A stretch of DNA of 64,000 nucleotides from Uloborus plumipes (taxonomy: Eukaryota > Arthropoda > Arachnida > Araneae > Uloboridae): the NCBI GenBank assembly GCA_038373865.1, contig JAXGGA010000070.1, positions 62,001 to 126,000 of the forward strand, given 5' to 3'. The notes below the pieces were generated by a model. That model was not told the origin of the DNA, did no database searches, and was given only the letters and a program-made list of their open reading frames with translations. Below, one piece after another: positions 3,188 to 63,748 of the stretch. The position numbers and the translations under genes are program-made. The first letter of the stretch is position 1. Each line of letters begins with the position of its first letter.

Positions 3188-3468
3188 GTAATGATCAGAG
3201 CCAGCTGTGTGTTTATTTTTGCTCTGAGTGCACTTACTCCTCGCCGCATAAAGCAAATTATTTGGTTCACAGGCGAACTCATACAGGTGAACGTCCTTAC
3301 TCTTGTAGCATATGTCCAAAAAGCTTCAAGCAGTTGGGTCACCTCACACAGCACCTGGCTTCTCACAACAATGACCGTCGCTTTGTATGTGAAATTTGCA
3401 ACAAGAGCTTCACACGCAAAGACAGTTTACTGAACCATCTACTAGTTCGTCATGACAGGAACTTTTAA
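3188..3468 (+). CDS. Alternative 3'-terminal exon 1, three C2H2 zinc fingers
   Basis: This is a terminal coding exon for the DNA-binding end of a zinc-finger protein. It starts after TTCTAG with GT, the last two bases of a split codon (phase 1), and reads 92 further codons to TAA. Counting the split codon as residue 1, finger 1 is C12-C15-H28-H32, finger 2 is C40-C43-H56-H60 and finger 3 is C68-C71-H84-H89. A TGERPY linker joins fingers 1 and 2. The finger-2 helix reads QLGHLTQ. The frame continues upstream of any usable ATG, so the exon depends on splicing. A polyadenylation signal lies at 3609-3614. Gene identity (a BTB zinc-finger locus of the lola/tramtrack type) is inferred from array layout only. 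Confidence 0.9.
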
Positions 3469-3608
3469 GAAACAGTTTTATTTTCGTAGCAAAAAATGAA
3501 AGCTTATGCTTAGTGTGTAGCTTTATTATCAGGCTTTGCAATCTTTTTCTATGATGTAATAAGCATGTGAAATATTAAGCGATATTCAGTTCCTTTTGTT
3601 TAATTGAA

Positions 3609-3614
3609 AATAAA
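3609..3614 (+). promoter_or_regulatory. Candidate polyadenylation signal for exon 1
   Basis: AATAAA lies 141 bases after the exon 1 stop codon, consistent with a 3'-terminal exon. The motif is common by chance in AT-rich DNA. Confidence 0.5.
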
Positions 3615-3942
3615 ATATACCTACTATCGTGCATACTTTTTGTAAACATACTCTTTCTTAAATCAGTTTTGAAGTTTTGTGTCATGATACTAGTGTAACT
3701 ATTCCTTTTAAAAAGATTAACAATTAATGATGATGTAGTTTTCTTATAGAGATACAAAAGTTACCATTCTAAGATTTTTCAAAAAGTTTATTATTGGTTT
3801 GAAATTAGTTTTCGACTCTCATCCCCTCTTTGAGAGCATTTACATCAACTTGAATGCCATATTGCATACACTAACTACTTGAAAGAAGCATTGGACTGAA
3901 AATTTTAACATCTTGGCAATTTCTGTTCTGATAATTTATTAA

Positions 3943-4224
3943 CCTTTTAGAACCGGGTGGTACACATGCTGTACCGCAAGTCTTTTTTCCTATGAAGGCG
4001 GGGTTGAAATCTTTGCTTCTACCCTTTGGAACAGGGGATTTTTCCAAGATTTCATACCCCTTTATTGGGGGATTACGGTTTTGTAGTCGAACTGCGAAAT
4101 CATAAATCCTAAGTGCTTGCCGTTGCACCTTTCCGTTTTCAGAGGAAAAGGGATCTAAGGTTCAACAGTTGTGCCGCCTGTCTCGAAAGGAAAACTTCTA
4201 TACAAATAGTCCGAATCCAAAAGG
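3943..4224. mobile_element. piggyBac-like MITE with TTAA target duplication
   Basis: This is a 282-bp segment, less AT-rich than its surroundings. The imperfect inverted ends are CCTTTTAGAACCGG and, on the other strand, CCTTTTGGATTCGG. TTAA flanks both sides (3939-3942 and 4225-4228). TTAA sites and CC-starting ends are typical of piggyBac-type elements. There is no transposase, so it is non-autonomous. It lies in the 3' region of exon 1. Confidence 0.75.
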
Positions 4225-4228
4225 TTAA

Positions 4229-4976
4229 AATTCAATTATTTTAATTGCAATTCATTTCAATTAAATATCTTGCCAATTATTGGCTTTTTAAGATTTAAAA
4301 ATTAATGTTCGAAAGTGCCATTATGGTACACATTAATTTATTTCATTTAATATTGCCTGATAGTAGTTTTGAGGCTTCTTCACTTTGTTTCAAGATAAAA
4401 AGTTGATTTAAACATATATATTCTGCGTATCCTGGTTATTTATAGAAAAAAAAGTTTTTCCAATGAGTACATGTTTATTATTTCTGCTTCAAAGGAACAA
4501 CATTTTAAGAACATTTTAAGATGAAATTTTGACTAAAAGTGTTTTCTATGTTAGAAATTGTAATTTATAATCACCTATATAAATGTTGCAAGTTAAATAA
4601 GATTTTTATGCCATAAAACAACAAGACTTTAATTTCTTGATGAAAAGATAAATTTCTTTTGAGATGTTTTCAAAAGGCAGAAAGCAGCATTGAACACCTG
4701 TTGAATTAGGAATCTTTCAACTTATATTAGTGGAAAGCTAGACATTTGTTGCAATTCAGTGAAATTCTTTCTTTGCTCTGGAACTTTTTGGAGAGACTTT
4801 TTTGGGGGGGGGGGGAGGGAAGACAAAAACTCATCTGCCTTCAATGTCTCGCATGTATTCTAATGGGTTCCTGTCTGATCAAAACTTTTAAAAGATTTTT
4901 TTTTTTTTTTTTTTTTTTTTTGTCATGAAGGAAATGGTTGGGTGATCCAGCTCAATATGACCTGCAATCATTTTAA
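4229..4976. other. Intron with poly-G and poly-T tracts
   Basis: No gene or recognised element was seen. Homopolymer runs occur at about 4804-4816 (G) and 4897-4921 (T). Confidence 0.4.
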
Positions 4977-7565
4977 TTAAGAGCCGTTTTTTTTAAGAAT
5001 CAGGCAGTCAAAAAACTCGACATTTTTGATTTTGCTGAAAATTTCAGAATATGGTCTTTACTTAAAATTATTAAACACGTGTTTTTTTATTTTTGCAAAA
5101 AAAATTTGTTTCTTTCCATTTTGGGAGGTCAAAGTTGGACTTTGCTCTTTTTTCAGTAAAAACATGCCAACTTAGATAAGCCAATACTTTTTGCTTTAGG
5201 AGTGAACCGTGGAACTGACAATTATTTTGTATTCTACTATATCCCCACTAATTGTAAGTACATAAATATTTGTGGACGAGTCTTTGCGGAAAGGTCAGAG
5301 GTCACTCAAAGTTGTACGAAAAATAGTTTTTTAATGCAACTTTGACCGACCAAATTTTCTTGTAGCAACAGCGAACCACTAAAGTGTACATATCAGTAAA
5401 TAACCACTAAAGAGTAGTATCCAAAAACATAAAAATATTTGTTGTTGCTAATTTGTACATTGAAATATTTGACTCTGAAATTGCAGAAATCGCAAAATTA
5501 CATGACTTTGAGGGTCATTATCTTCTTGCACCACGAGTGACCAGCTATAAAACTAGCTGGAGTAGAAGCCTTTCTTGTCCCTGAAACAAAATCAGTTAAC
5601 AAACCTATGGCTACTCTTTCGGTTTTTGCAAAATTCGGCTCTAAACTTTGCAAAATGAGTGTTTTTCGGCGATAGAGAAAAAAGGCCAATTACCTGTTTT
5701 AAAATATGTATTGCTATTATTTGTTGCACTATTATATCACAGTTCCCTAACTAGCTGAAATGGCATCTAAAGATGGTTATACAGTTGAAATCAAATTGAA
5801 AATGAATTCCCGAAAATGCTCAGTATACGTCAAAAAACTATTTTTTTTATTTGTCCAGGCGACTTTTTTTGTTACTTCTCTCTTTATTCCGTTCGGCTCC
5901 AACATGGTGAGCAATTTCTGTACTTCTTGTCGTTCTAGTTGCTGTAAAACAGGAAAGCAGTGTATCTTAAGTCTGATATAAAGTAATATATCCTGTCATA
6001 TCAAGTTTATAATTCTAAAAGAATATTTTGAAATGGATAAAAGACACAATTTAAGTTAAAATCGTCCTGTAGCAAATCTACCATTTTAGCAACTGAACCT
6101 AAAAACCTTATAAAGAGTACCAAGAATCCAAATGTGTTCCAGAGAGGTTGGGCTCTTCCCAACAGAAAAAAAGACACATCTCTCTTATAAACAAAAGATG
6201 TATGTCTATAATATTTTCATGAAAGGAGAAGAAACTGGTATAAAATCATTACCAGAAAATACATCCAAACAAATGAGAAAACAAATAAATCATAATGGGG
6301 AAAAATATTTCAACATTCTGAATATATGACTTCTTCACAAATCAGAAGCCTCTTTAGCAGAATGTCACTTCTTAAAAATCTTGGTACATTAAAGCATCCC
6401 GGTGCAGGTCTGGAAATTTTTGATGACATTCACGACAATCGAGAGAAAGAGGGCACAGCTTAACAAGTAATTTTTTTTCAGATTATGTCTTTTATACATT
6501 TCAAAATATTCTTTTAGTATTACTAAACTGGATATTTCTATGATGAACTTGATATTATTTATATCAGACTTAAGGTACACTGCTTTCCTGTTTTACAACA
6601 ACTAGAACGACAAAAAGTACAGAAATTGCTTACCATGTTGGAGCCGAACGGAATAAATAGAGAAGTAACAAATAACGTCGCCGGGATAAATAAAAATATA
6701 TAGTTTTTGACGTATACTGAGTATTTTCGGGAATTCATTTACAAGTTGGTTTCAACTGTATAACCATCTTTAGATGCCATTTCAGCTAGTTAGGAAATTG
6801 TGATATAATAGTGCAACAAATAATAGCAATACATATTTTAAAACAGGTAATTGGCCTTTTTTCTCTAACGCCGAAAAACACTCATTTTGCAAAGTTTAGA
6901 GCCGAATTATGCAAAAACCGAAAGAGTAGCCATAGGTTTATTAACTGACTGTGTTTCTGGGACAAGAAAGGCTTCTACTCCAGCTAGTTTTATATCTGGT
7001 CACTCGTGGTGCAAGAAGATAATGACCCTCAAAGTCATGCAATTTTGCAATTTCTGCAATTTCAGAGTCAAATATTTCAATGTGCAAAATAGCAGCAGCA
7101 CATATTTTTATGTTTTTGGATACTACTCTTTAGTGGGTATTTACTGATATATACACTTCAGTGGTTCGCTGTTGCCACAAGAAAATTTGGTCGGTCAAAG
7201 TTGCATTAAAGAACTATTTTTCGTACAACTTCGAGTGACCTCTGACCTTTGCACCAAAACTCGTCCACAAATATTTATGTACTTACAATTAGTGGGGATA
7301 TAGTAGAACACAAAATAATTGTCAGTTCCACGGTTCACTCCTAAAGCAAAAAGTATTGGCCTATCTAAGTTGGCATGTTTTTACTGAAAAAAAGAGCAAA
7401 GTCCAACTTTGACCTCCCAAAACGGAAAGAAAAAAATTTTTTTTGCAAAAATAAAAAAACACGTGTTTAATAATTTTAAGTAAAGACCATATTCTGAAAT
7501 TTTCAGCAAAATCAAAAATGTCGAGTTTTTTGACTGCCTGATTCTTAAAAAAAAATGGCTCTTAA
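4977..7565. mobile_element. Long fold-back (inverted-repeat) element A, about 2.6 kb
   Basis: The left arm (about 4977-6055) and right arm (about 6478-7565) are near-identical reverse complements of roughly 1.08 kb, around a loop of about 420 bp. Both outer ends read TTAAGAGCC, so the flank is either TTAA or TA. Each arm carries the mirror copy of one open frame containing TERVAIGLLTD (minus strand at 5498-5689, plus strand at 6887-7147). It is conserved because the arms are copies and I do not recognise it. The loop has a short open frame (6132-6329) followed by a TSSQIRSLFSRM-like stretch that may be a transposase relic. The superfamily is uncertain. Confidence 0.85.
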
Positions 7566-9213
7566 AATAAAATTATACCTAATTGCTCCAGTGCCTAAAT
7601 GACTCCAAAGAGGTGTAAACATATCTGCTTTTTACTGTGGAGCTTTCAGAGATCTGTTTCCTATGATGAAGAAAACTATTAAACTAATTACTGTTGACAC
7701 TGCTCTAAAATAATATTCCACTTAGTACTGATCTCACACCTGTTTGTTTTAATGCCGTATAATATAATTCCCATGGTTTTTCAGCTGAAAATTCACTGAT
7801 TGACTGGAAAATGGTTATTGCTGTGTAAAGGAATGTTCCTCCCTTCATTTCTCTCCCACTTGATGTACTCTACTGTCTACTTTCTTTTAGTAACGTAGTG
7901 ATGTTAATGAGAAATGTACCGTCGGGCTATGTGCATGTAGACCAATTTTGTAGAATGGAATTTAAACAATTTGGTTCTTTGCATGCTATAAAGAAATGTA
8001 TTGTAATTTATTACAAATTTAATATGGATCAAGGCCCTCATTCACTATAAAATATTGCCTTGAAATCATTACAAAAGATAACATAGTTTCATACCAGTCT
8101 AGTCTTATTTTTTTTCCCTGGAAGCTATCCCCCTTTTTAGCGGTCTGAATTTGCCATTTAAGTATGCTTTTATGCTGTTTTTTAAAATGACTTGGAAAAC
8201 ATTATTTTTAAAAACTACTATTAACTTTTCAAAGATTGAAAGACGTAAAAATGGTAAAATATGCAAAAAAAATTCTCAAACTCTGACTTTTTTTTCTACC
8301 ATTAATTTTTAATTTACGGAGGAATTTTACCGATCATGTTAGTAATTCTTAAGATTGTTCACCATTTCTCAATTAAAATTAAATTCTAAAATTATTTTAT
8401 TTAGTAAAAAGTTGCGCTTTCCCTTTTTGCACCGTGAATGGGATGAAAAGTGTGATCTTTGTTCAGAATTAGATTTTTTTTTTCACCTTCGATTATTATT
8501 AAAAATTTTAAAAGACAATAAAATTTGTTTATTTTCATTGAAACCATAATTTTGAAATGTAAATGTTTAAACAAAATTCTGTGATAATTTTGAGTGCTAA
8601 TTTCGAAATGTTATTGAGTTGATTGCTAAATTGACTGAAATTTAATTGGAAAAGTGAAGTGCTGTCTTTAGACATTTTCAGTGTAAAATCTTGTTTTTCT
8701 TCTATTTTCTGGTACAAAAAAATTTATTATTTTCTCTCTTTTTTTTTTAATTAAAAGCTACTGTTAATGTTTCTAGTATATAACTCGGTTTATGTCTTGT
8801 TCATTTGATGAACATCTTTTTTAACTTCTTCCAGCAGTGCAAAAAATGCACTGTTTAAAGGCCTTTGAGAGAATATAGAATTTAATTCAGATTAGATTGT
8901 CTTGACAACTATGGTAACAGTAGCCAGGCAAAGGTGTTGTTATAAAAGAGTAGCATTTATCACCCAGGTTTATCTTCTGTCAACTAGTTTGTATTTAATT
9001 TTATGTAGAAAATCTCCATAGTTATATTTTTAGAGCTTTCATTCTTGCATTTGTTATCTCTAATTTATGAAGGTGCAAGAAAACTGCTGAGTAAACTTTT
9101 ATAAAAATGATGTTTTTGTGCATCCCTACCCCATGTTTTTGAAATATTTTTTTTTACATGTAAGTTGAGTGTAAAAATATAAAAACTTTATTTATTTCTC
9201 TTTTTCTTTTCAG
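7566..9213 (+). other. Intron before exon 2, nothing recognised
   Basis: AT-rich sequence with small T and A runs and no coding or element signal that I can support. It ends in a strong 3' splice site (TTTTTCTTTTCAG, AG at 9212-9213). Confidence 0.5.
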
Positions 9214-13446: not shown

Positions 13447-13459
13447 CTCAAATTTATGG

Positions 13460-14138
13460 TTGGTTGGTTGGTTGGTTACTTCGGGTTTACTGGCACAAGA
13501 GCCTTCATAGGCTATATTGCGCCAAACGATGATAACCCATAAAACTTATAAAAATTTAAAACCATTTTTAAAACAGACACATAAATGACGTTTAAAATCT
13601 TAACTGATCAAGAGAATGAAAAGACAAATAACTAAAACAAAGACAAAACAGACAAGACAAAGATAAAACCACTATATTAGAGATGTAAAACCAATATCAT
13701 GTAAAAAGGGGAACAAATTAGGATGAGGTATATCCCCAAGTAATTCAGTCAAAGATGGATAAAAGTTATTAAAATGTTTAAAACGAGTTTGATTAAAATT
13801 TGGGCATTTACACAGGATATGAAACACTGTCTGGTTGACATTGCAGTTAATACATATAGGCGCTGGTTCACGGCAAAGAAGGTGTTTGTGTGTGAACCGG
13901 GTATGGCCGATGCGAAGACGGGCTATGACGACTTGGTCCCTTCGTTTAATATTTAAGGATTTAAAAGCTTTTGTGAAGGGCTGGATAGAGTGCAGTTTGT
14001 TTTGCACTTCTCCATCCCAGTCACGCTGCCAAGAGTTGTATATACTACCCGTAATGGAATTTTTTACATCCTCATAAGGAACCAGGTCTTCGCAATGAGC
14101 ACTTGCGGCCTTAGTAGCTGTATCGGCTGCCTCATTGC
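13460..14138 (-). mobile_element. 5'-truncated non-LTR retrotransposon (LINE) insertion
   Basis: The insertion is bracketed by a perfect 13-bp direct repeat, CTCAAATTTATGG (13447-13459 and 14139-14151). Read on the minus strand it begins inside the coding region, continues through the C-terminal part of the polyprotein and ends in a (CCAA)n tail, seen on the plus strand as GGTTGGTTGG from 13460. Truncation at the 5' end, a simple-repeat tail and a target duplication are the signature of target-primed reverse transcription. Confidence 0.9.
13672..14138 (-). pseudogene. LINE polyprotein C-terminus (RNase H end and cysteine motif), truncated
   Basis: The open frame on the minus strand starts at the truncation point with GNEAADTATKAA, which matches the conserved end of a retrotransposon RNase H domain. 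It continues through RDQVVIARLRIGHTRFTH and a cysteine cluster (C-x-NC then HILCKCPNF) of the type that closes the Jockey/I-group ORF2. It stops at 13672. Only about 155 of more than 1000 expected residues remain, so it cannot move on its own. The visible frame is uninterrupted, so the insertion is fairly young. Confidence 0.85.
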
Positions 14139-14151
14139 CTCAAATTTATGG

Positions 14152-16659: not shown

Positions 16660-16949
16660 AACGCAACCATAACAATGATGATTCTTCAGTTCAACCTATC
16701 CATTTTTGTCCTGAATGTTCTTATTCTACCTCATGGTTTCAAGATTACTCCATTCACTTACAATCCCATTATGAGGAACGTCCCTTCAAATGCAAATTTT
16801 GCCTAAGATGTTTCAAACGAAAAGATCATTTGAGGCGTCATGCACTCAGCCACAGCAGTGAGCGGCCATTTTCCTGTAACATGTGCGATCGAACATTTAT
16901 TCACAAAGATTATTTGCAGAGTCACCTAAACTCCCATGGTCTTCGCTGA
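16660..16949 (+). CDS. Alternative 3'-terminal exon 3, three C2H2 zinc fingers (no start codon)
   Basis: The exon opens with AA of a split codon in phase 1 and reads 95 codons to TGA at 16947-16949. Fingers lie at about residues 17-37 (CPECSYSTSWFQDYSIHLQSH), 45-65 (CKFCLRCFKRKDHLRRHALSH) and 73-93 (CNMCDRTFIHKDYLQSHLNSH), all with complete ligands. There is no usable in-frame ATG before the fingers, so translation must come from an upstream exon. Its finger-2 helix RKDHLRR is nearly that of exon 4 (RKDHLKR), pointing to neighbour duplication. Fold-back element B begins 69 bp after the stop, inside its 3' untranslated region. Confidence 0.92.
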
Positions 16950-17017
16950 TGAACATTTTACACTTTCCTTCAAAAAAAAAAAAAAAAGGAAAATCACCAG
17001 TTTTAGCAAAAGTATAA

Positions 17018-19269
17018 TAGTCCAGGCTAGTGTCCATTGAAAGGTCATCAAACCTAAAATTTTTATATATATGAGATTTTTTGGTGGTTTCTATATGAAT
17101 TTGACCTGCTGATTCCGAATTCGTTGAGTGCCCAGATGCTAAACCTTGAGCATTTTTGTCAAAATGGCGAAATCCAATATGGCTGCTGTAAATGGTATGA
17201 AGCAAATTAATGGAAACGTGAGTGCAATGAAACATTTTATACGCTTAAAAATGATTGTACTCTTTAGTCAAAATATTATTCTATTAAAAATTAATATTTA
17301 TGAAAAGTATACGAATAAAAAATTTATCAAAATGGTAAAATTCAAGATGTCAGCCTAAAAAGTTCTAAGGTTTGATTTTCAGGTACAAATCATTTTTTAA
17401 ATCGTAATTTACTTGAAAATAGAATGTTTTAACAAAGATAAATATTTAAAATGATATACAGGGAACATAAAAAATGGTTCAGCCTAAAAATAACACTGTA
17501 AAAATATTTGGAAACATTCCAAACTTAAGTTTTGGGATTTTGCCGATTTAGACTAATTTCCTGCAAGAAACAAGTTTCTTTTGCGAAAAAAATTCCTATA
17601 TTGATACAAGTTAGACGAATGCGAACTTCTCACTGGTGTGAAGCATATTTTTAGCTACCAGTTGGAAGGTATATCTAACGTGTTTGTTTAGTGTTTCGCC
17701 TTCAGCTGGATTATGGATTGTCCAGATTGAGTTCACCCAAGTAAGGGTATGTGCAATCTCTCGATGTTGTAGTTTTGGATGAATTGCAAAACAAATAAGC
17801 AGCTTAGTTATTTTCTTGCAATTTTAGCCTTGGCAGTAGCCATATTTTTTAAACTGCTTCAGGAGCTTTCCTCGTAAGCCAGAAAGGTGCTGAACTGTTA
17901 CCATAACCTATCTTTTTCGCAAGTTTCCGATTTATTGCCGTAAAGGGACTGACTTTTGTTTGGAAGCGGTATAAATTCTCTAGCAAGGTTACTGACTTCA
18001 GCAAGAAACTTTCCTGATTTCTTCCAGGTATGTTACTGGCACAAGTTAAGCCTATATTTGCCCATTATTTTCCAGGAGTTTTTTGGACTGTTTTTACAGT
18101 GAAACTGTGAAGAGAGAAATTGGCTTAAAACATATCAGACAAAAAAAAAATATTTTCCGGTAATAATAAAATCGTATGAGAAACAGCACTACAAAAAAAT
18201 TATTTTTTCCCAATGAAAAAGCGAAAAAATGCTTAGGGCTAATGAGATATATTCGATAGATGTTTTGTGATAACTTTAGAAGGGTCTGAATCAACCGAAC
18301 AAAACATTGTTACTAAACTAAAATGGAGGGAATGTCTTGAGAATGATCTAGTAGGTTCATTAAATATTTTGCAGTAATTTTAAAAACGCCTGTGAGACAG
18401 CAGAACAAAAAATTGTTACTACTTAACTAAAAAAATTTGCAAAATTTTCTATTTTGATGCTTTATTTTAACATAAAGCCTTTTCTTATTTTACTACTTCA
18501 TGCTTATTTGTTTTGCAATTCATCCAAAACTATAACATTGAGAGACTGCACATACCCTTACTTTCGCGAAGTCAATCTGGACAATCCATAATCCAGCTGA
18601 AGGCGAAACACTAAACACGTTGGATATACCTTCCAACTGGTAGCTAAAAATACGCTTCATACCAGTGAGAAGTTCGCATTCATGTAGCTTGTATCAATAT
18701 AGGAATTTTTTTCGCAAAAGAAACTTGTTTCTTGCAGGAAATTGGTCTAAATCGGCAAAATCCCGAAACTTAAGTTTGGAATGTTTCTAAATATTTTTAC
18801 ACTGTTATTTTTAGGCTGAATCACATTTTTTATGTTCCCTTTTTTTCATTTTAAATATTTATCTTTGTTAAAACATTCTATTTTCATGTAAATTACAGTT
18901 TAAAAAATGATTTGTACCTGAAAATCAAACCTTACAACTTTTAGGCTGACATCTTGAATTTTACCATTTTGATAAATTTTTTATTCGTATACTTTTCATA
19001 AATATTAATTTTCAATAGAATAATATTTTGACTAAAGAGTACAATCATTTTTAAGTGTATAAAATGTTTCATTGCACGCAAGTTTCCATTAATTTGCTTT
19101 ATACCGTTTACTGCAGCCATATTGGGTTTCGCCATTTTGACAAAAATGCTCAAGATTTAGCGTCCGGCACTCAACGGATTCGGAATCAGCAGGTCAAATT
19201 CATATAGAAACCACCAAAAAATCTCACATATATAAAAATTTTAGGTATATGGCCTTCTAGCCTGGACTA
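17018..19269. mobile_element. Long fold-back (inverted-repeat) element B, about 2.25 kb
   Basis: The left arm (about 17018-17803) and right arm (about 18503-19269) are near-identical reverse complements around a loop of about 700 bp. Outer ends read TAGTCCAGGCTAG on both sides, with a TA flank or terminus. The same reading frame (VKMAKSNMAAVNG / VKMAKPNMAAVNG) is found in mirror positions (17146-17358 plus, 18941-19153 minus) simply because the arms are copies. No transposase was recognised. Transcripts of exon 3 that read into it would form very long double-stranded RNA. Confidence 0.85.
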
Positions 19270-19542
19270 TAATTTGTGAATTTTCAAGGATAATTTATCT
19301 TTATTAGGTTGCCACAACAATAATGTGTAAAAAAAGTTCATCCAAAATTTCGCTTAAGAAGTTTAAATACCAAAATGTTTTTTTTTTTCTGTGTTGTTTT
19401 AGGTATTGGTTTATTCTTAATAGTAAATAGTTATTAGAAATAATTTGGATATTGCATATTAGAAAGTTAAGAAATAAAATCACTAAGTATATTTTTAGAG
19501 AACGAAGACTAGAACTAATTTATGTTCTTTCAAGGTACATAC

Positions 19543-26384: not shown

Positions 26385-27496
26385 AGCCTACTTTCCCGTT
26401 AAAAATAAAAGAAAGACGAAAAAAGTATTAAAAGTAGCTTAATGCATCTAAAAAATATCGCCAAGTCCAAAAAATATCGCCAAGTTAAAAAATATCGCCA
26501 AGTCAAAAAAAAATATCGCCAAGTGAAAAAAATAAAAAGGTAAAATGAATATCGAAAAATTAAAAATTTGAAAGTAGGGTATTGAGATGGGGAATTTGTG
26601 TGTCGGTCGGTCGGTCGGTCGGTCTGTCTGTCCCCCCCTAATAACTTTTGAATGAACAGTCCGATTTGGACAAACTTTTTTTTGTTGGAAAGATCTCGGC
26701 GAGTACAGCTCATTCCCATATTTGATTTTTTGATTTGAACAATTTTTGGTTCAAATTTGAACCGTTCAAACAACCGGTCCCGCGATACTAACTTTTTAAT
26801 GAACAGTCCGATTTGAACAAACTTTTTTTTGTTGGAAAGAACTTTTCAAGGATACTTCATTCCCGTATTTACATTTCCGATTTGAACAATTTTTCGTTCA
26901 ACATTGAACCGCTCAAGCAAGCTGTCACCCCTAATAACTTTTGAGTAAACAGTCCGAAAAAAAATGACTGACTGTGCAGACGATTTTTTGTTTATTTATT
27001 CATTTGTTTTATTGAATTTATTATTATTATTATTATTATTTTTGGCAGACGATTTTTTTTTGTAAAATAAATGTTTCATTCACGAGGGCATTTTATTCTT
27101 TATTTATATTTAACAACTGGCAACGGATTAAAAGTGAAATTCGAGACATTTATCAACGGACGAGTTTTTTTTTTTTCTTTTTTTTTTTTTCTTTCTTTGA
27201 TAAAATGTGTTTTGATGTACTTTGTACTTTTAATTTTTTTTTTGAAAACAATTGAGGAATTTTTCTACGGAAGAACTGTAACAGTTACATTCTTTAAAAG
27301 GTGCGACAAAACTTTATTTATTCATTAATTTACTTTTTATGTGTCTATTTCATCTGATGAGAGGGGTATATTTTGCTTTTAGAAATCAGCTTCAAGTGCT
27401 AAAAAGGTATGTTTGACATAATTTTTAGTCTTAGATAATCAAGAGAATAATGATCAGATGCTAGAATGCCGATGTCGATGTACGGGAAAGTAGGCT
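26385..27496. mobile_element. 1.1-kb element with 15-bp inverted ends and internal repeats
   Basis: Both ends are AGCCTACTTTCCCGT (26385-26399) and its exact reverse complement (27482-27496). Inside are four tandem units of AAAAAATATCGCCAAGT (about 26450-26524), a (TCGG)n/(TCTG)n stretch near 26601-26630, and two tandem copies of a segment of about 150 bp built on ACAGTCCGATTTG.ACAAAC. No transposase was seen. It interrupts one copy of a duplicated host segment, which shows it is an insertion. Confidence 0.7.
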
Positions 27497-31987: not shown

Positions 31988-32223
31988 CTCCAGATGAAGT
32001 AATTTTGAATAATCGTGTGCCTGGTAGCTCCATAGACCGTCCATTTGGTTGCAGACTTTGCCTGAAATCCTTCAAGCGGAAAAGCCACTTGCATCAGCAT
32101 TTGATCACTCATAGTGGCGCACGTCGCTTTAGCTGTCATATATGCAGTAAGTGCTTTACTCGTAAAGAAAATTTGCAGTACCATATCATCACTCACCATC
32201 AAGAATTCAATAACTTTATCTAG
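31988..32223 (+). CDS. Alternative 3'-terminal exon 5, two C2H2 zinc fingers (finger 1 lost)
   Basis: The exon opens with CT of a split codon in phase 1 (Ala if the donor base is G) and reads 77 codons to TAG. Where all sister exons have finger 1, it has about 20 residues without any Cys pair (PDEVILNNRVPGSSIDRPFG). Two complete fingers follow at about 22-42 (CRLCLKSFKRKSHLHQHLITH) and 50-70 (CHICSKCFTRKENLQYHIITH). The first Cys comes about 20 residues earlier than finger 2 of the other exons, so finger 1 was deleted as well as mutated. The frame is clean, so the two-finger form may be functional. The finger-2 helix RKSHLHQ is closest to exon 12 (RKSHLQQ). Confidence 0.88.
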
Positions 32224-35307: not shown

Positions 35308-36025
35308 AAAACCAATATAAATGAAAAATGATCAAATAGGCTTTGTGCTGAACTATATTTGAAGTTAAAAATCAACGTAAATAAAGCACAAATAAGGTAG
35401 AAAGTACAGCAAATAGCTATTTCAAGGCTACAATGGAGCCCCTTCATCAGTGCAAGAAGCTCAGCAAACAACATGAAAGCTGTAAGAGAACTGAGCGCGA
35501 AGCACGTGTGCCCCGGTATTTATAACAAATGGGCGAGTGCGCTTGAGCTCACAACAAAGCGGGAAAACACCGACCAATCAGCGATCAGCAAAACGTCAGG
35601 AGAGCGAAGAAAAGGGGGGAGGCGGCAAAGGAAAGTAGGGGAAAAAAAACGCGGGAGAAAACACTAGAAGACGAAATTATAAAAATTGCTTCCAGATGTC
35701 AGGGAAAAATGGAACACTGGAAAAATCATTCACCAGAGAATGGGAATTTTTCCAAATATGGTAAGCTTCCCAAAAATCGAGGTCATAAACTGACGAACAT
35801 TTACAAATAATTCTAGCCGAAGAAAAATCAAAGCAGTGACCAGAGGTCCAACAATGCTGAGCAATGGAAGAGCGTGCTAGTTCTTTATGTTTAACATAAT
35901 TTTGATGCTCTTTCAGACGGTGCTTAAGAGGCCGCTTAGTCTGGCCTACATAGCTAATTGCTGTACTTTCTACCTTATTTGTGCTTTATTTACGTTGATT
36001 TTTAACTTCAAATAAAACCAATATA
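35308..36025 (-). mobile_element. Penelope-like element remnant with inverted terminal segments
   Basis: The 12-bp direct repeat AAAACCAATATA borders the unit (35308-35319 and 36014-36025). Inside, a segment of about 62 bp at 35354-35419 is repeated in inverted orientation at 35951-36012. Between them, on the minus strand, lies the end of a GIY-YIG-type frame. The central part (35470-35660) is unusually G+C-rich for this window. The reverse transcriptase is absent, so this is a truncated or internally deleted copy. Confidence 0.7.
35677..35985 (-). pseudogene. GIY-YIG endonuclease end of a Penelope-like element (partial)
   Basis: On the minus strand a frame of about 100 codons runs from the inverted segment to TAA at 35677-35679. 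It begins SYVGQTKRPLKHRLKEHQ, which fits the Y-V-G-Q-T-x-R-x3-R-x2-EH pattern of the GIY-YIG nuclease domain. It continues with IAQHCWTSGHCFDFSSARII and FWEAYHIWK, matching the C-terminal part of Penelope-like retroelement proteins. No ATG precedes it and the polymerase is missing, so it is a fragment. No internal stop was seen. Confidence 0.75.
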
Positions 36026-41535: not shown

Positions 41536-41813
41536 GGAATGCCTCCCAACTTTCCCTTCACTTGTGCCCAGAATGTCCCTATTCTACTCCACGTAAGGTA
41601 GATATGTGCAGGCACATGCGCACCCACTCCGGGGAACGCCCTTACCATTGCGATGCCTGCCCCAAGTCCTTTAAGCTGCATCATCATCTCACTCGGCACT
41701 CGTTGGTCCACACAGAAGAGAGAAACTTTCAGTGTACTGTGTGCAATAAACTATTTAATCATAAAGGACATTTACAGCGCCATTACATGTATCATCATAC
41801 ATTTTCCTTGTAA
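41536..41813 (+). CDS. Alternative 3'-terminal exon 6, three C2H2 zinc fingers
   Basis: The exon opens with GG of a split codon (Gly), then NASQLSLHLCPECPYSTP and on for 91 codons to TAA. Fingers lie at about residues 11-31, 39-59 (CDACPKSFKLHHHLTRHSLVH) and 67-88 (CTVCNKLFNHKGHLQRHYMYHH), with SGERPY and TEERNF linkers. All Cys and His ligands are present. The finger-2 helix LHHHLTR groups it with exons 7, 8, 10 and 11. The surrounding exon text is clearly richer in G+C than the introns. No ATG precedes the first finger. Confidence 0.93.
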
Positions 41814-44039: not shown

Positions 44040-44289
44040 AATTAGTTCAATCAAATCTGCCTCATTCCTGCCCTGATTTTACTCTTTTAACTCTTTTTAG
44101 AGCTAGTACGAATTAGATGCCAGCTGTTCTGTTGCGAACTTTTGCCCAAAATTTTTCAGGCAACACCATCATCTTCATCGACACTTGCTAACTTGCACTG
44201 AGGAAGCAAGTTCATATGTTCAGAGTGAAACAAAACATATACATAGTCATTCAGGAATAAATGTGCCGTTGAGACACCTAAAACATTAA
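44040..44289 (+). pseudogene. Decayed zinc-finger exon B
   Basis: After CAATTTTTCAG, AA opens in phase 1 and reads ELVQSNLPHSCPDFTLL. This aligns with the conserved start and first Cys of sister exons but with finger 1 broken, and it stops at TAG 44114-44116. In another frame, from about 44140, finger 2 is still readable as FCPKFFRQHHHLHRHLL. It is followed by TCTEE in place of the linker and a ligand-less finger-3 relic (ending PLRHLKH) to TAA at 44287-44289. A frameshift, a stop and lost Cys residues show it is non-functional. It is nearest the exon 6/7/11 type (HHHL helix). Confidence 0.85.
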
Positions 44290-45120: not shown

Positions 45121-46182
45121 ACATGTGCATGAACTCACGGGACGCGGGAGCGTCCCGCCCCGCCAAGAAAACCAAATACAAGACGCCAAGAAATTTCCGT
45201 CACCAATAAAAATGTAAAAGAGAGACTAAGAACTGTTTACGCGAGTAACCAAACCGGGGTTTTCACCCCTCTGTATCTCAGCCCCATAAAGTTCCTTAGA
45301 GTTCATTTTTGGTATACTCAATCTTCAGCGGCCCTGACGGCACATACTAAAGCAAAACATCCAGGACCCTCAGGGGGAGGGGTGATATATGTTATAAAAT
45401 CGCTATTTTTCGCACTTTTTAAAAATTGTTTGATAGGGGTTCAGACTAAACGGTAACTCGGATTGAGCTCTGCTTTTGCACCCACATTTATTTTGTCTCA
45501 AAGCTTGGCATAGGGGGTTTTTCGACCCCCCACCCCCTCCCCCCTCGTTTTTATTTTCCGTATCTTTTCTCCCCGGGGGTCTTTAGTGTTGATTTTTGGT
45601 ATGAATATTCTCGATGAGACATTGAGGACATTTTCCCAAAATTTACCCCCCGGGGTCATCACACCCCGGAGTTATTAATGCTTAAAATTGGTCCGATTTC
45701 TATCTACTAGCTTTGTTCAACATCTGAGCATTTATGTTTTCATTGTTGGGCCACGAGGAAAGAAAACTCAATGATTTATAATTTCATCTGTTGCCAGTTT
45801 CTATTTGTTAACAAATAAAATATTTGTAATTGATTTTATTGCATAAGGCTTTTAAAAGGGATCTTCAATTTAGTTCATTTTAATATGAGATCGGCAGTAA
45901 GGGTTGGGGTTTTTTTTTAAACTTTTAATTTAATCGTAGTATTGTTAGCAACTAGCTTTGTTTTGCGTCGGTTCGGGTGGTACATTGTGATTGATTTCAA
46001 ATTTATCCTAGACTGAAGAAGATCCTTGAACTTTTGCACCAAATGCATGCCGCCAAGAAAACCACAGATGTCGGACCGCCAACAAAAATGTTGAAGGGAA
46101 AAAAAACATGCAAAGTAAATTTTGAAGACAAAAAAAAAAAAAAAAACAGGCAAAGAAATAATATTAATGCAAAAACATGTGA
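45121..46182. repeat. G+C-richer repeat region with recurring CGCCAAGAAAACC
   Basis: CGCCAAGAAAACC occurs near 45160 and 46050 and again inside the hairpin that follows (46221, and inverted near 46512). C- and G-runs such as CCCCCCACCCCCTCCCCCC near 45527 mark it off from the host introns. It may be one composite mobile element together with the hairpin. No coding frame was recognised. Confidence 0.45.
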
Positions 46183-46797: not shown

Positions 46798-47102
46798 ATG
46801 ATTTTGCACAACCAGTGCTGCTTCATTTATGCCCTGAATGTCCATATGCCACTCCATACAAATCAAATATGAGGAATCATATGCCTACCCATTCTCTGCA
46901 GAGACCACATACGTGCACCTTTTGCGAAAAGTCTTTTAAGTTGCAGCATCACCTCCAACGCCACATGCTTACTCATTCTGGAGAGCGCAAATTCAAATGT
47001 TCTGATTGTGACAAAACATTTTCTCTCAAGGAAAATTTACAGAGACATTTTCTGAATAAGCATGCTGTTGAGACTGGAGAACCATCAAATATGCAAATAT
47101 AA
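46798..47102 (+). CDS. Alternative 3'-terminal exon 7, three C2H2 zinc fingers
   Basis: The exon follows CTTTGTTTCAG and opens with AT of a split codon (Asp with a G donor), then DFAQPVLLHLCPECPYATP and on for 100 codons to TAA. Fingers lie at about residues 12-32, 40-60 (CTFCEKSFKLQHHLQRHMLTH) and 68-89 (CSDCDKTFSLKENLQRHFLNKH), all with complete ligands. Finger 3 has H-x4-H spacing. The first linker is SLQRPH instead of TGERPY and the second is SGERKF. A short hydrophilic tail (AVETGEPSNMQI) ends the protein. It groups with exons 6, 8 and 11. Confidence 0.93.
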
Positions 47103-52157: not shown

Positions 52158-52429
52158 GCTCTCAGCATGCTTTTCTACTTCATCTGTGCCCCGATTGTCC
52201 GTATTCCACTCCGCGTAAGGCAGATATGTGCAGGCACTTGCGCCTTCATTCCGGAGAACGGCCTTTTACTTGCAATTTCTGTCCAAAGACCTTTAAGTTA
52301 AAGCAGCATCTTACACAACATTTGCCACGACATTCATTACAGCCTAGCATCAAATGTGCTAAGTGCAACAAAACTTTTGCTCACAAAAATAGTTTGCATC
52401 ATCATTGCAAGACTCAATGCAAAATATGA
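52158..52429 (+). CDS. Alternative 3'-terminal exon 8, three zinc fingers (finger 3 Cys2HisCys)
   Basis: The exon opens with GC of a split codon (Gly) and reads SQHAFLLHLCPDCPYSTP and on for 89 codons to TGA. Fingers 1 and 2 (about 11-31 and 39-59, CNFCPKTFKLKQHLTQHLPRH) are complete. Finger 3 (about 67-88) reads CAKCNKTFAHKNSLHHHCKTQC, where the last zinc ligand is Cys instead of His, an arrangement that can still hold zinc. The linker before finger 3 is SLQPSIKC, unlike the TGER type. A polyadenylation signal lies at 52567. Close relative: exon 6. Confidence 0.93.
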
Positions 52430-53407: not shown

Positions 53408-53667
53408 GCGACTTCCCGGAGCCGGGTGCGATTTATTTGTGCTCTAAATGCTTCAACTCAAAACCGAGCACGACAGATTGGTGTTTACACTTGCGTAACT
53501 ACTCGAGAAAGAAGCCTTACGGATGCAGATTCTGTCGCAAGTCCTTCGTGCAGCGGGGCCAGTTTCAAAGGCACCTACTCAGTCATACCGGAGAGATATG
53601 CAACTCCAGATGCGCCATGTGTGGGAGATATTTGGCCATAGAGAATGAGCACAAGCTCATTGTGTAA
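53408..53667 (+). CDS. Alternative 3'-terminal exon 9, one intact zinc finger (eroding exon)
   Basis: The exon opens with GC of a split codon (Gly) and reads DFPEPGAIYLCSKC and on for 85 codons to TAA with no frameshift. Finger 1 (about 12-32) keeps Cys, Cys and the first His, but the second His is Tyr (CLHLRNY). Finger 2 (CRFCRKSFVQRGQFQRHLLSH) is complete with an unusual helix QRGQFQR. Finger 3 keeps CAMC but ends GRYLAIENEHKLIV without a His pair and with an extra C upstream. It is unusually G+C-rich for the window. Either it is an isoform with a reduced DNA-binding domain or the exon is early in decay. A MITE begins about 70 bp after the stop. Confidence 0.8.
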
Positions 53668-57437: not shown

Positions 57438-57898
57438 ACTATCTATTTTGTTTATTTATTTATTTATTTAAAAAAAAAAACTTGGAAAAGATAATTAGGC
57501 AAAGTATACATTTAACGACTTGCAACAACAAGCTCGAAAAATAAGTTACTGAAATCAAGAGGTGGATGTCTAAAAGTGCATCTTAGGTATAATAAGTTAA
57601 CTTCATTAAAAAAAATACCAATTGTAAATTTAATTAGAAAAAGAAATTGCTCAACCAATCATTCAAGTCAAGTACTTTCACCTGGTCAACAAACTTAAAA
57701 CTTTCAGTTCTTATTAATTTGTATGTTTTTGATATTATAAGGAAAATTGAGTTCAAATTATCTCACACGAGACCTCAGAGTCTTGTTTTAGCAAAAAAAT
57801 TACAACATTAAAGCAGCATAAGAACTTCCATGCCAAAGTTATTGCTATTTACTTCACTGCCATAGAATATCTTTCTCTAACAATTTATCCAATTACAG

Positions 57899-58194
57899 GC
57901 AGTCTCCCACATTCTTCGCTTCATTGGTGTACTCACTGCTCCTACTCCACACCACGCAGAGCTGATTTACGCAGGCACTCGCTCATTCATTCCGGGGAAC
58001 GTCCTTACCAGTGCAAATTTTGTCCCAAGTCCTTCAAGCTGAAAGGCCATCTGCAACAGCATTTACAAAGTCATGGTGGTGAACGCCGCTTCAAGTGTGG
58101 TTTGTGCAACAAAAGTTTCACTCGTAAGGAAGGTTTACAGTACCATGTTATTGCCCATCATCATCGTGCTAATGATTTGAAAAAGTGGCTTTGA
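57899..58194 (+). CDS. Alternative 3'-terminal exon 10, three C2H2 zinc fingers (no start codon)
   Basis: The exon follows TTTATCCAATTACAG and opens with GC of a split codon (Gly), then SLPHSSLHWCTHCSYSTP and on for 97 codons to TGA at 58192-58194. Fingers lie at about residues 11-31, 39-59 (CKFCPKSFKLKGHLQQHLQSH) and 67-87 (CGLCNKSFTRKEGLQYHVIAH), all complete, with SGERPY and GGERRF linkers. The tail is HHRANDLKKWL. It has no in-frame ATG before the fingers, so it is easily missed by start-codon-based gene finding. Finger 2 is of the KLKxHL type (exons 6, 8, 11) while finger 3 resembles exons 2, 5 and 12 (LQYH), so the exon is mosaic in similarity. Confidence 0.93.
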
Positions 58195-58721: not shown

Positions 58722-58727
58722 AATAAA
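58722..58727 (+). promoter_or_regulatory. Candidate polyadenylation signal for exon 10
   Basis: AATAAATAAA lies about 530 bases after the exon 10 stop, the first clear signal downstream. Confidence 0.4.
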
Positions 58728-59290
58728 TAAACAATAATTACAATTTTAAGAGAATGCAATTTGATTCATAATGCATTGTATGACTAATTTTCTTCATATT
58801 GTTATATAGTATTATTTGAGATCATAGCTGCTGCTTGAAACCATTTTCTAGGCTCATGTTGATGTGTGAACGTGAACAAGGTTTATTTGTGATCCATTTC
58901 AGTCTTAATACAGAATGAATACTACTTCCCAAAATCACTATTTCAATGCAGCAAACTCATTCATTTTGTATGACCCCAAATATTTTCCATCAGGATTAAG
59001 AATTCAAAGTCTTCATCATATTATATCCAGTGTGAAAATCATTAAAATATTATTTTTTTGCATTGCAAAGTGTAAAATCTATTCTACAATTGAAATTCGG
59101 TTTAATATCAATGCATATTTATATAGACCATTCTAAGCTCGAAACAATCTTGAGATAAAGTGGACTCAACACTACAATTAAAAGAAACTTCATTCCATTT
59201 CAATACAAATTGTCTGTTTGGCTATTGATTTGTTATCTCTGAGTACTTAATGATTTTGTGGTGTATTAACCCTAGGGCTATTAAAAACTA
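58728..59290. other. Non-coding
   Basis: AT-rich. The open frame at 58915-59136 has no domain. Confidence 0.4.
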
Positions 59291-60195
59291 AAGGGGAACA
59301 ATAAATGCAAGGCTATAAAACAAGGGGACCCCTCCCAAAATTTGTACGAAAACAGGCCAAAAGATCGTTAGCGATAGCCAAAAGCGTTCCCTGTGTCCGA
59401 CAATACTTCAAGTTAGAGCACGGTTTATTGCCGCTGCGAATTCAAAAAATAAAGGTGAATTAATGGGTGACTTACCCCATATGGCGTATTGTGTCGAAGG
59501 CACACAAAAAAGAAGACAAACTTCTCTGGAGTAGATGCATATATTTGGGAAACGGGTAGTACACTGTCACACACAAATTTGCTCGGCCGAGAATTACTAT
59601 ATCTTTATGTGCGAGAAAATAAGAAGAATCACAAGGATGATGGTCTTTGAGTGTTGAGGAGTCCGGGAAAACCGTCGATCCTAAAGAAAACTGGCGTCCT
59701 CCATCTTGGTCCTCGAGCCGGCCTTTAGGCCTAACTCAGCGAGCATGTGGCGGGGGAAAGATTTAGGGGAACATCTTGGACATGTTTTCCTCTATATGGT
59801 GGACTCCTTCCTCGATTTCCTTTGCTACATCTCCTTTATGGTTTCATTCTATACTTCGTTATCACCACTTGGAGTTTCTTCGTGCTATGTGTGGCGCAGA
59901 CTTAGATTAATCGTGGAGCTCCTCTCGGCATGTCTGATCGCAGCCACGGTCCTTCCAAGTCTGCCCTCAAAAACTCCTGAATGGCCATCCTCCCTCTCGC
60001 ATGTTGCCGATCGCGCCCGAATAGTCATTCGGAATCATTCGGGTGTCGTTCCTCCGAACGCACAGCCGATCAGTGCCCCGCTTCCCCAACATCGTAAAAT
60101 TACTCCGGGTGGCGGGAAACTGTAAAAAAACTACGCACAAAATGGCGAAGGACAAAAAAAATGGAGGGAACCGACGGTTTCATATGAAATGGGGA
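59291..60195. mobile_element. G+C-rich island of probable mobile origin (possible solo LTR or other element)
   Basis: About 900 bp stand out from the AT-rich surroundings, with an abrupt change at both ends. A 139-aa open frame (59706-60125 plus) has hydrophobic stretches but no domain I recognise, and the minus strand also has open text. On the minus strand there is TATA-like and AATAAA-like text ahead of repeat-like ends. No clear terminal repeat or target duplication was found, so the class is unknown. No gene is called. Confidence 0.4.
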
Positions 60196-60580
60196 AAGTA
60201 AAGCGATAAGACATTTGTTAACTGAACACAAAAGAAAAACATGTGAAGTATCACAGATTTTATGAATACACAACCTAAAATTATCAAGTCCAACTAACCA
60301 ATGATTTCATTTAATGAGTTATGAAAATTTGCACATCTCTCTGCTTTTAGCAATGTCATTTGCACTGGCAAATTTCTTTAATATTACTATTTAATTTTTA
60401 ATAATCAATGTAATGAAAGTATTGTTGCAGTTTGACTTATATTTAACAAGTCTTCAATTAAAAAAAAAAATATCTGAGGCTGATGCATTTTATTGTAACA
60501 ACTAAATTAGTGATGCATATATACTGCATGATTGTATTTGGTGCTCTGATCTAAAATAAATAATTATTACTTTCTTGTAG

Positions 60581-60846
60581 GATACTTTTCCCAACCTTCT
60601 TGACTCCATTTGTGCCCTTAGTGTTCATATACCACTGTACATGAAGCAGATATTTGGCAACACATGTTAACCCATTACAGGGAGCGCCCTCATCAATGCA
60701 ACTTGTGTCCAAAATCTTTTAAGTGACATCATCACCTTACTCAGCACTTTTTGAGCCAGACAAAACAGCACAACTTTTCTTAAGCTAAGTGCTACAAAAC
60801 TTTCACCTGCTGAGAAAGTACAGAATTGTTTCATTACAGCAAGTAA
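60581..60846 (+). pseudogene. Decayed zinc-finger exon C (five in-frame stops, frame otherwise intact)
   Basis: After TTTCTTGTAG, GA opens in phase 1 and the reading runs the full normal length of 88 codons without any indel. It is interrupted by TGA (after YFSQPS), TAG (in place of the E of CPEC), TGA (after CNLCPKSFK), TAA and TGA before the final TAA. Finger 1 (CP-stop-CSYTTVHEADIWQHMLTH) and finger 2 (stop-HHHLTQHFLSQ) are still readable. Finger 3 has lost its Cys and His. It is nearest to exons 6, 7 and 11. An AATAAA at 60916-60921 survives. Confidence 0.92.
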
Positions 60847-60921
60847 ATGATGTAACTAATTCATGTGTAATTTGTCTGTGAAGATCAGGACTCTCTTTTC
60901 TTTCCTTAATGTAAAAATAAA

Positions 60922-62175
60922 GATAATTATGTCATCAAATCTCAAGAAAAACTTTTTTTTTCTTAACACTCCCTCGGTTAAAAAAAGGGATTAATTTCCC
61001 CCCTTTTATTCTTGAAGTGAAAAAATCCATCCAGAATGAAAATGTCGTTACTCTGTTCTGAGTACAATACTCATGTAGTATTTTACTCATGAGGTGGAAA
61101 AAATAAGCAGAATTGGTTTTCTTTTAGGATAACATTGACTAAAGGTGTAATATACATGATGAGCATTGCTTCTTAGATATCAAACACCACAGATAAAGCA
61201 CATTCATGTAATGATTTACAACGGTTTGCCTCTCTCTACTTTATATTTTTTTACTTAGAAATTTCAGTTAATTTCTTACATAAATTGTAAGGAAAGTGGT
61301 GATTTCACAATAGTCTAGCCTGAAATGCTGATTTAATTATTAATTCTCAAATTATTATTTTATGTTTGTTTGAAATCTTATGTCTTCATCTTCCATATTC
61401 GCACAATAAATCAAATACACATGATATTGTTGAACTGTTGTTATTGAAATGAAAATGTTTTTTGATATTGGAAAACACAAATAATTTGTCCCCTGAAAAT
61501 GTTGAATCTTCATATAGAGGGAAAAATTTGTACAGAAAAGTTCAACTTATCATTTATCAAAAGTGAGAATTTAAAAAAGAAACTTTAAGATATAATAATG
61601 TTCTTTAGAAAAATTGGCAGCAGTAAGTGCATTGAAACAAAATTAACAGTCACTCCCTATGCTTTTCTGTAAGCACTTTTGTAAGATACACAATGCAATA
61701 TGAAAAAGTTAAAAACTTTGCTGTAAATAAAAAGTGATTTTTGGACATGTTGCTCTGCTGTGTTAGTGTTACTTATTTATTTCAACAGCTCATTTTTATA
61801 CATGTTTATTTTTAAAGGAAAGATAATTTGAAAAACAGACGTATTAAAACACATTTTATTTTCCTTTTTTAATAATGCATTTTGTTTTTTGCTGATAAGT
61901 TTTACTTTGCACCCCTCAACAAAGTATTATTTCAAATACCATGACTGCCCTTACATGAATTTTGTTTGTTCTGAAGTTTTGATTCAATAACACTGATAAT
62001 TGAATAATGCTGGATATTGTTTTGATTTTGGCGACTTGATTCATTAAAGTGGCTGATTCAATTAACCAGCGTCCACTGTACTATACATGGTCAAGTAATA
62101 TCACAAATATTACATTGTTATTTTTGTTTCTCCACATAACTTTGTCTTCAATTCTAACTTATTATTTTCTTTTAG
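60922..62175 (+). other. Intron before exon 11
   Basis: AT-rich, nothing recognised. It ends with the acceptor TTATTTTCTTTTAG (AG at 62174-62175). Confidence 0.45.
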
Positions 62176-62453
62176 GGAACCCTTCAAAATCTTGTGTTCT
62201 TCATTTGTGCCCAAAGTGTTCATATTCTACTCCATTTAAAGGGGATCTTCGGATACACTTTTGCATTCACGAGAAGCGGCCTTATCAATGCGAGTTCTGT
62301 CCAAAATCCTTCAAATTACGTCATCATCTTGCTCAGCATGTGCTAATTCATACAGGAGAGCGTAACTTCAAGTGTTCTGAGTGCTTCAAAACATTTCCTC
62401 GCAAGGAGACCTTGCAACGTCATCAGATAAATAAACATGTCTCTTCCGTTTAA
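62176..62453 (+). CDS. Alternative 3'-terminal exon 11, three C2H2 zinc fingers
   Basis: The exon opens with GG of a split codon (Gly), then NPSKSCVLHLCPKCSYSTP and on for 91 codons to TAA. Fingers lie at about residues 12-32, 39-59 (CEFCPKSFKLRHHLAQHVLIH) and 67-88 (CSECFKTFPRKETLQRHQINKH). The linker between fingers 1 and 2 is HEKRPYQC, one residue shorter than the TGERPYxC of most sister exons, which may change how fingers 1 and 2 sit on DNA. All ligands are present and finger 3 has H-x4-H. It groups with exons 6 and 7. Confidence 0.93.
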
Positions 62454-63440
62454 ACTTAAATCTTGTTATCAATATATTTTCATGTTCTGTGTACTCCTTT
62501 CTACTTTTCTTTTGTATGCATAAATGTTTTTGACTAATTTTGTTCATTTTGTTTGTTTGTTTTTTGTAGTTTGTATGCATATTAAATTGTGATTTGAGTT
62601 AAAAATTCATCGTTCCGTAGTCTATTTTTAAACCACTAATCAATTATTTTCTTCAGTTGAACTTTCGTCTCATCTGTCATTTAAAATTTTTCTGTCAGGG
62701 AGCGGTGCAAATCCCAATGCAAATTTGTCTGGAAAACAAAAACCATAGCCGCTTGTATATGTAAATATGTTGATTTTTCAAAGTCAGTTGGGAGGGGGGG
62801 GGGCAATTGACCCCCATAAATGATGGGCCTGACTTTCACTCGAAATTTCTTTGGCAACTATGTATAATATTATTAGATTTCAGTCGGGCAATGAGAGCTG
62901 AAATTTAATCCCGCTATAATTGAAAGCATTGCTATGCTGTGCGATCCGTAAGCATGCATCAGCTTCCCAAGCTAGTGGGATGAGTAGTGCAACTTTCGCA
63001 ACCTGATTTTGCTACTCAGGAATAGTCATCGAAAACTACAAGGAAAGATTTTTAGATTCAGAAACTTACTTATCAAAATCTGTAGGAAAACTGATCCATT
63101 ATATTAACATGTATGGAATTTGAGTCACCAATTACAACAGGTTAACGTAATGTATGCATGAAAATAAGCCATAGTTTATTTGAAAAATCACATTTCAGGA
63201 ACAATTTTGAAAGAAAAGGAAAAAAAAATGGTTACAATGATTAAATTATTGCATGTAATTTGTCCAAGTGTGAGAGATATTGGCTCATTAGATCTATCAA
63301 TAACAGATCACTTCACATGAAAAATGTTCACAGTTGAGTTTTAGTAATGATGTTGCATAATTGCTGGGATTTATTATTTTTGATTTCATTATACTTAGAT
63401 TTATCTATTTCTATTAATTTTAATAATAATGATATTATAG
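62454..63440 (+). other. 3' region of exon 11 and intron before exon 12
   Basis: It has a G run (about 62791-62802) in a repeat ending GATGGGCCTGAC, which is inverted relative to the repeat near 36090. No AATAAA is close to exon 11. ATTAAA at 62581 is the nearest variant. Confidence 0.4.
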
Positions 63441-63748
63441 ATTTCAATTCTCTATCCTGCCTGCTTCATTTGTGTCCTGAGTGTCCATATTCTACTCCAC
63501 GAAAACAAGATTTAAGCAAGCACATGTGCATCCATTCCGGAGAACGGCCCTATCTGTGCAAGTCCTGCCCAAAGTCTTTCAAGCGGAAGAGCCACTTGCA
63601 GCAGCATACACTGATTCACACTGGTAAACGGCACCACTTCAGATGCGATGTGTGTAACAAAAGTTTCATTCGCAAAGATAGCTTGCAGTATCATCTACTT
63701 ACAAATATTCGCTGCTCAAAAAGCTTGAATAAAACAATTCAAATTTGA
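63441..63748 (+). CDS. Alternative 3'-terminal exon 12, three zinc fingers (last ligand altered)
   Basis: The exon opens with AT of a split codon (Asp with a G donor), then FNSLSCLLHLCPECPYSTP and on for 101 codons to TGA. The acceptor (AATAATGATATTATAG) has a poor pyrimidine tract, the weakest in the array. Fingers 1 (about 12-32) and 2 (about 40-60, CKSCPKSFKRKSHLQQHTLIH) are complete. The linker to finger 3 is one residue longer (TGKRHHFRC). Finger 3 reads CDVCNKSFIRKDSLQYHLLTNIRC, with the second His missing and a Cys seven positions after the first His. A polyadenylation signal lies at 63849-63854. Confidence 0.92.

What the first reader, a model, noticed from the sequence alone, without database searches (positions are those of the whole stretch)
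3188..63748. Array of at least 12 phase-1, terminal zinc-finger exons across more than 60 kb
All exons are on one strand, begin after a 3' splice site with two bases of a split codon, encode a short spacer plus about three fingers, and stop. None has a useful start codon. This is the design of a gene with mutually exclusive 3' exons (lola/tramtrack/broad type). The first two bases (GT, AA, AA, GA, CT, GG, AT, GC, GC, GC, GG, AT) rule out T as the donor base, since T plus AA or GA would be a stop. With G they all give small or acidic residues. A predicted common exon ending in G and probably encoding a BTB domain lies left of the window.
Basis: partly seen in the sequence, partly recalled or inferred. 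Interest (0 to 1): 0.9.

Follow-up and report, generated by a model that had tools for sequence, protein, structure and literature searches.

The report
Spider array of alternative zinc-finger endings
This stretch of what is probably spider DNA carries twelve related, interchangeable-looking gene endings, most encoding a different three-finger DNA-binding tip, laid out as in fruit-fly genes that swap endings to make many regulators from one start.

Summary
Twelve open, stop-terminated C2H2 exons lie on the + strand, each behind a phase-1 3' splice site. Ten encode three fingers, E5 two, E9 one. Two broken relics at 44.0 and 60.6 kb keep the phase, making 14 copies. Three of the twelve (E1, E3, E4) have reciprocal-best orthologues in the spider Uloborus diversus (92, 80, 85%; next paralogue 53-60%), with 31 of 32 comparable DNA-contact residues unchanged; for the other nine none was identified. 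The host is most likely a spider. Best reading: alternative 3'-terminal exons joined to one shared 5' part, a design like lola or mod(mdg4). The shared donor and the BTB start are unproven. No BTB was found in the window's ORFs of 80+ residues or seen in listed relatives; Uloborus models chain neighbouring exons; and the one named arachnid isoform pair found, from a tick, shares a 36-residue start that is too short for a BTB. Cis and trans splicing cannot be told apart. The host assembly search did not complete.

The parts
3188..3468 (+). E1: phase-1 terminal exon, three C2H2 fingers; 92% identical over 66 aa to Uloborus P0134
9214..9506 (+). E2: phase-1 terminal exon, three fingers
16660..16949 (+). 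E3: phase-1 terminal exon, three fingers; 80% identical over 94 columns to Uloborus P0134
24518..24852 (+). E4: phase-1 terminal exon, three fingers; 85% identical over 108 columns to Uloborus P0127
31928..32223 (+). E5: phase-1 terminal exon, two fingers, first finger lost; stronger in-phase AGs at 31988 and 31994
41536..41813 (+). E6: phase-1 terminal exon, three fingers; stronger in-phase AG at 41572 inside the coding part
44040..44286 (+). relic copy: acceptor-like AG and phase kept, finger-like part in another frame, in-frame stops; end approximate
46798..47102 (+). E7: phase-1 terminal exon, three fingers
52158..52429 (+). E8: phase-1 terminal exon, three fingers (third ends in Cys)
53408..53667 (+). 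E9: phase-1 terminal exon, open, only the middle finger intact; most diverged member
57899..58194 (+). E10: phase-1 terminal exon, three fingers; weak acceptor, 57866 is an in-phase alternative and 57960 (other phase) scores higher
60581..60850 (+). relic copy: acceptor and phase kept, six in-frame stops in 90 codons, 69% DNA identity to E11 over 241 columns; end approximate
62176..62453 (+). E11: phase-1 terminal exon, three fingers
63441..63748 (+). E12: phase-1 terminal exon, three fingers (third ends in Cys); weak acceptor, 63399 is a stronger in-phase one

Best explanation
The window holds part of one large arthropod, most likely spider, transcription-factor locus. One upstream constant part (outside the window) ends one base into a codon and is spliced to any one of at least twelve downstream terminal exons. 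Each terminal exon adds a short spacer, its own set of C2H2 fingers and a stop, so one N-terminus is paired with many DNA-binding tips. The array grew by old tandem exon duplication and loses copies by decay. Shown: exon anatomy, one strand, one phase, homology of the copies, two relics, cross-species constraint on three exons. Inferred: the shared donor, the choice of one exon per mRNA, cis rather than trans splicing, and DNA binding.
For: Best acceptor in one phase in 12 of 12 frames or 11 of 12 over the full range, against 20 of 46 controls; both relics keep it. Acceptor-to-finger-2 length is 37-43 codons. First exon bases are G or A in all 12 (31928 taken for E5), so a donor G would give only Gly, Asp or Glu. 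The profile found no minus-strand copy. No sequence recurs once per gap, as separate duplicated genes would show. Uloborus orthologues of three exons: E1 92%, E3 80%, E4 85%, reciprocal best, E1 before E3 in one model; for E1 the similarity starts at the first full codon after the acceptor. 31 of 32 comparable contact residues agree between species, while the ten three-finger exons have ten different contact sets. Third codon positions vary most (0.59 against 0.43 and 0.40, 66 pairs). A tick gene has two named isoforms with one N-terminus and different three-finger ends.
Against: No transcript data, and no common exon was found. Uloborus models string neighbouring exons together and list no BTB; nine of the twelve exons have no identified orthologue there. 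For E3 and E4 the alignment with the Uloborus models runs a few codons upstream of the acceptor. Shared phase can be inherited from one ancestral exon, so it does not itself prove a shared donor. Acceptors of E5, E10 and E12 are weak or ambiguous. Poly(A)-like signals do not help: 7 of 12 first signals are nearer than the random median of 258 bases, range 13-1334. Gap comparison would miss 5' exons under 25 codons.
Confidence: 0.62

Rival explanations
1. Same shared 5' part and same exons, but the exons are transcribed from their own promoters and joined in trans, as reported for mod(mdg4) and lola in flies.
For: Exons are spread over 60 kb; trans-splicing is reported for loci of this design (PMC12692577 passages; PMC4667647 passages).
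Against: All 14 copies found are on one strand, so cis splicing is enough. PMC4667647 reports cis-spliced mod(mdg4)-like homologues in Daphnia, beetle and Hymenoptera, so trans-splicing looks derived within insects (the last step is my inference). No promoter data.
Confidence: 0.15
2. A cluster of separate small zinc-finger genes, each with its own short 5' exon, that arose by tandem duplication.
For: Public models of the Uloborus orthologues are named as separate genes; 5' exons under 25 codons would have escaped the gap comparison.
Against: No sequence family recurs once per gap at DNA or protein level. In the BLAST hits, DNA similarity between copies covers exon and at most about 20 bases before it. 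No start codon lies between acceptor and fingers in any of the 12.
Confidence: 0.17
3. The exons are non-functional remnants or an assembly artefact.
For: Two relics and two reduced exons (E5, E9) show decay; repeats and a Tc1-like element lie nearby.
Against: Twelve open frames, third-position bias, and for three exons 80-92% cross-species identity with contact residues kept.
Confidence: 0.04

Closest known systems
lola (longitudinals lacking), Drosophila
   Same: A constant 5' part with many alternative terminal exons, most encoding C2H2 fingers (17 of 20 isoforms with different C-terminal fingers, PMC11426971 passages).
   Different: No BTB shown here. Most exons here encode three fingers of one close family; PMC11426971 says TTK-type BTB proteins usually carry one or two C2H2 fingers (section 9). 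Host is probably a chelicerate.
mod(mdg4), Drosophila and other insects
   Same: Large array of alternative 3' exons behind a common start.
   Different: Most of its variable exons encode FLYWCH domains, some lie on the opposite strand, and joining is in trans (PMC4667647 and PMC12692577 passages). Here C2H2 and one strand.
Uloborus diversus models P0134 and P0127
   Same: Carry orthologues of E1, E3 and E4, E1 before E3; probably the same locus.
   Different: Named as ordinary zinc-finger genes, with exons chained; no orthologue identified for the other nine exons; one extra finger exon before E1 and two segments in P0127 without a clear partner.
Amblyomma americanum LOC144106833 isoforms X1 and X2
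   Same: One N-terminus with alternative three-finger ends.
   Different: Only two isoforms seen; shared start is 36 residues, too short for a BTB; 38-42% identity to E1.

Membership tests
lola/TTK-type BTB-zinc finger genes | Common N-terminal BTB domain | not testable with these tools
   Upstream sequence lies outside the window and the host assembly search did not complete. No BTB in the 51 non-exon ORFs of 80+ aa in the window.
lola/TTK-type BTB-zinc finger genes | Several alternative 3'-terminal DNA-binding exons in one compatible phase | tested here: met
   12 exons, each with a stop and a phase-1 acceptor; best AG in that phase in 12 of 12 or 11 of 12 over the full range. That they are alternatives is inferred.
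lola/TTK-type BTB-zinc finger genes | One shared donor joined to each terminal exon | not testable with these tools
   No RNA data; first-base pattern is compatible with donor base G
lola/TTK-type BTB-zinc finger genes | One or two C2H2 fingers per isoform, as usual (not universal) for the TTK group | tested here: not met
   10 of 12 exons carry three fingers; the usual count is from PMC11426971, section 9 read
mod(mdg4) | FLYWCH domain in the variable exons | tested here: not met
   6 of 12 exons scanned against Pfam at E 0.001 gave zinc-finger families and no FLYWCH; the other six were not scanned but align with them
C2H2 zinc-finger proteins | C-X2-C-X12-H fingers | tested here: met
   PF00096 above its cut-off in all 6 of 12 exons scanned; at least one patterned finger in 12 of 12

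The most novel reading that the evidence does not exclude
Arachnids evolved their own exon-swapping transcription-factor locus with a short non-BTB N-terminus: a bank of three-finger terminal exons, each kept for its own DNA target, independent of the insect lola and mod(mdg4) genes.
Probability: 0.25. Interest if true: 0.75.

Novelty: new member of a known kind. Interest (0 to 1): 0.5.

Why it matters
[quoted passage not shown] A chelicerate array with orthologous exons in two species would let one ask when this design arose, whether it needs a BTB start, and how one splice donor chooses among a dozen distant acceptors. It also suggests that automatic annotation can hide such loci as ordinary multi-finger genes.

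Tried and rejected
Chance origin of the phase was tested against 46 control open frames. The loose finger pattern also hit 2601, 44125 and 58452 (+) and 14414 and 46047 (-); of these only 44125 (the first relic) was supported by the profile. Per-unit 5' exons were sought by self-BLAST and by translated comparison of gaps: only pairs of repeats, none once per unit. BTB in the window was sought with Pfam (E 0.01) on all 51 non-exon ORFs of 80+ aa: a Tc1 transposase passed its cut-offs, a zf-met2 match (45133-45453, E 0.0085) did not, and there was no BTB. BTB-linked relatives of up to about 500 residues were sought twice: no PF00651 seen by eye in the 120 rows listed of 4862 and of 139. One row bears a BTB name (P0054, a barnacle) but lists no PF00651. 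Poly(A) signals were uninformative. RNA family and tRNA scans were empty. The solved-structure search listed ordinary C2H2 proteins in its best 60 of 305. Literature: searches listed no paper that, by title and start of abstract, describes such an array in a chelicerate; several lists were capped, and only the openly licensed literature is held.

Full report
What is there. The window is AT-rich (about 32% G+C) eukaryotic DNA. A finger pattern search and frame reading found twelve open C2H2 exons on the + strand. Each begins behind a 3' splice site that leaves two bases of a split codon, runs 37-43 codons to its second finger, and ends at a stop. Ten carry three fingers, E5 two and E9 one. The best-scoring paralogue of each exon is 51-61% identical, except for E9 (32%). 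In the self-BLAST hits, DNA similarity covers the exon and at most about 20 bases before it.

Two more copies. Self-BLAST and a profile scan of six-frame fragments found two relics, at 44040 and 60581, with several in-frame stops but the same acceptor phase. Beyond the twelve exons and these relics, the profile gave nothing better than E = 0.1 on either strand.

Is it more than chance? With a home-made acceptor matrix the best AG of each exon frame is in phase 1 in 12 of 12 cases if AGs within 75 bases of finger 2 are left out. Over the whole frame it is 11 of 12, the exception being E10, whose top AG (57960) lies inside finger 1. In 46 control frames it is 20. The copies are homologous, so this shows a conserved splice phase rather than twelve independent events. 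The chosen acceptor is itself the top AG in 8 of 12. For E5, E6 and E12 the stronger AGs are in the same phase. E12's acceptor is weak: 61% of the + strand AGs in the window score at least as high, against 12-16% for E5 (31928) and E10.

Constraint. Third codon positions differ most among the 66 exon pairs (0.43, 0.40, 0.59 for positions 1-3). Three exons, E1, E3 and E4, have reciprocal best matches in two Uloborus diversus models at 92% over 66, 80% over 94 and 85% over 108 columns, against 53-60% for the next paralogue. E1 precedes E3 in one model, and its similarity starts at the first full codon after the acceptor; for E3 and E4 the alignment runs a few codons further upstream. No orthologue was identified for the other nine exons. 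Three segments of the two models, one of them ahead of E1, have no clear partner here (best 45-55%), so gene content differs or the array continues to the left. Of 32 predicted DNA-contact residues comparable in the three exons, 31 agree between species, while the ten three-finger exons have ten different contact sets. Contact positions are named from recalled knowledge of the C2H2 fold. Entropy is higher at contact than other positions in fingers 1 and 3 (2.09 against 1.25, 1.96 against 1.42) but hardly so in finger 2 (1.18 against 1.13). The host is most likely a spider, though no tool named it.

How it probably works. Terminal exons of one phase and one strand, without a start codon ahead of the fingers and without a repeated 5' exon found in the gaps, are best explained as alternative 3' ends of one transcription unit. 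T cannot be the donor base. G would give Gly, Glu or Asp throughout (E5 read from 31928), with all four bases used at the third position of the glycine codons. The shared donor, the choice of a single exon and the cis mode are inferences.

The BTB part. It cannot be decided here. The window's ORFs of 80 or more residues show none. Reading by eye I saw no PF00651 in the 120 rows listed in each, of 155, 4862 and 139 proteins that passed. Among 356 fetched proteins, five pairs share their first 15 residues; the only pair named as arachnid is Amblyomma LOC144106833 X1 and X2, with a shared 36-residue start and different three-finger ends. The host assembly search did not complete.

What is known. 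PMC11426971 (passages and section 9 read) places TTK-type BTB proteins in arthropods including Arachnida, counts lola among the oldest, and notes that many members have several isoforms differing in the DNA-binding part, usually with one or two C2H2 fingers. PMC12692577 and PMC4667647 (passages) describe trans-splicing of mod(mdg4) and lola, with cis-spliced mod(mdg4)-like genes in Daphnia, beetle and Hymenoptera. This locus looks as if it works like those; membership in the lola family is not shown, and the three-finger exons depart from the usual count.

Verdict.

Noticed in passing
1429-2694: Tc1-like transposon: open transposase frame on the minus strand (1484-2542; HTH_Tnp_Tc3_2 and DDE_3 in Pfam) between inverted ends of 51 bases, 88% alike.
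   Followed up: partly
4967-7576: Large inverted repeat, arms 4967-6050 and 6482-7576, 94% identical; origin not identified.
   Followed up: no
17014-19273: Second large inverted repeat just after E3, arms 17014-17801 and 18501-19273, 92% identical.
   Followed up: no
26449-26957: 147-base tandem repeat, about two copies (26635-26957), next to a 19-base repeat array at 26450-26534.
   Followed up: no
13672-14139 and 35677-35985, minus strand: Frames that by eye look like retroelement remnants (RNase H-like and GIY-YIG-like); Pfam gave no match at E 0.01.
   Followed up: partly
proteins P0121 (Uloborus) and P0124 (Parasteatoda), no window coordinates: Two other spider models look by eye like chains of related finger exons, so spiders may hold several such arrays.
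   Followed up: no
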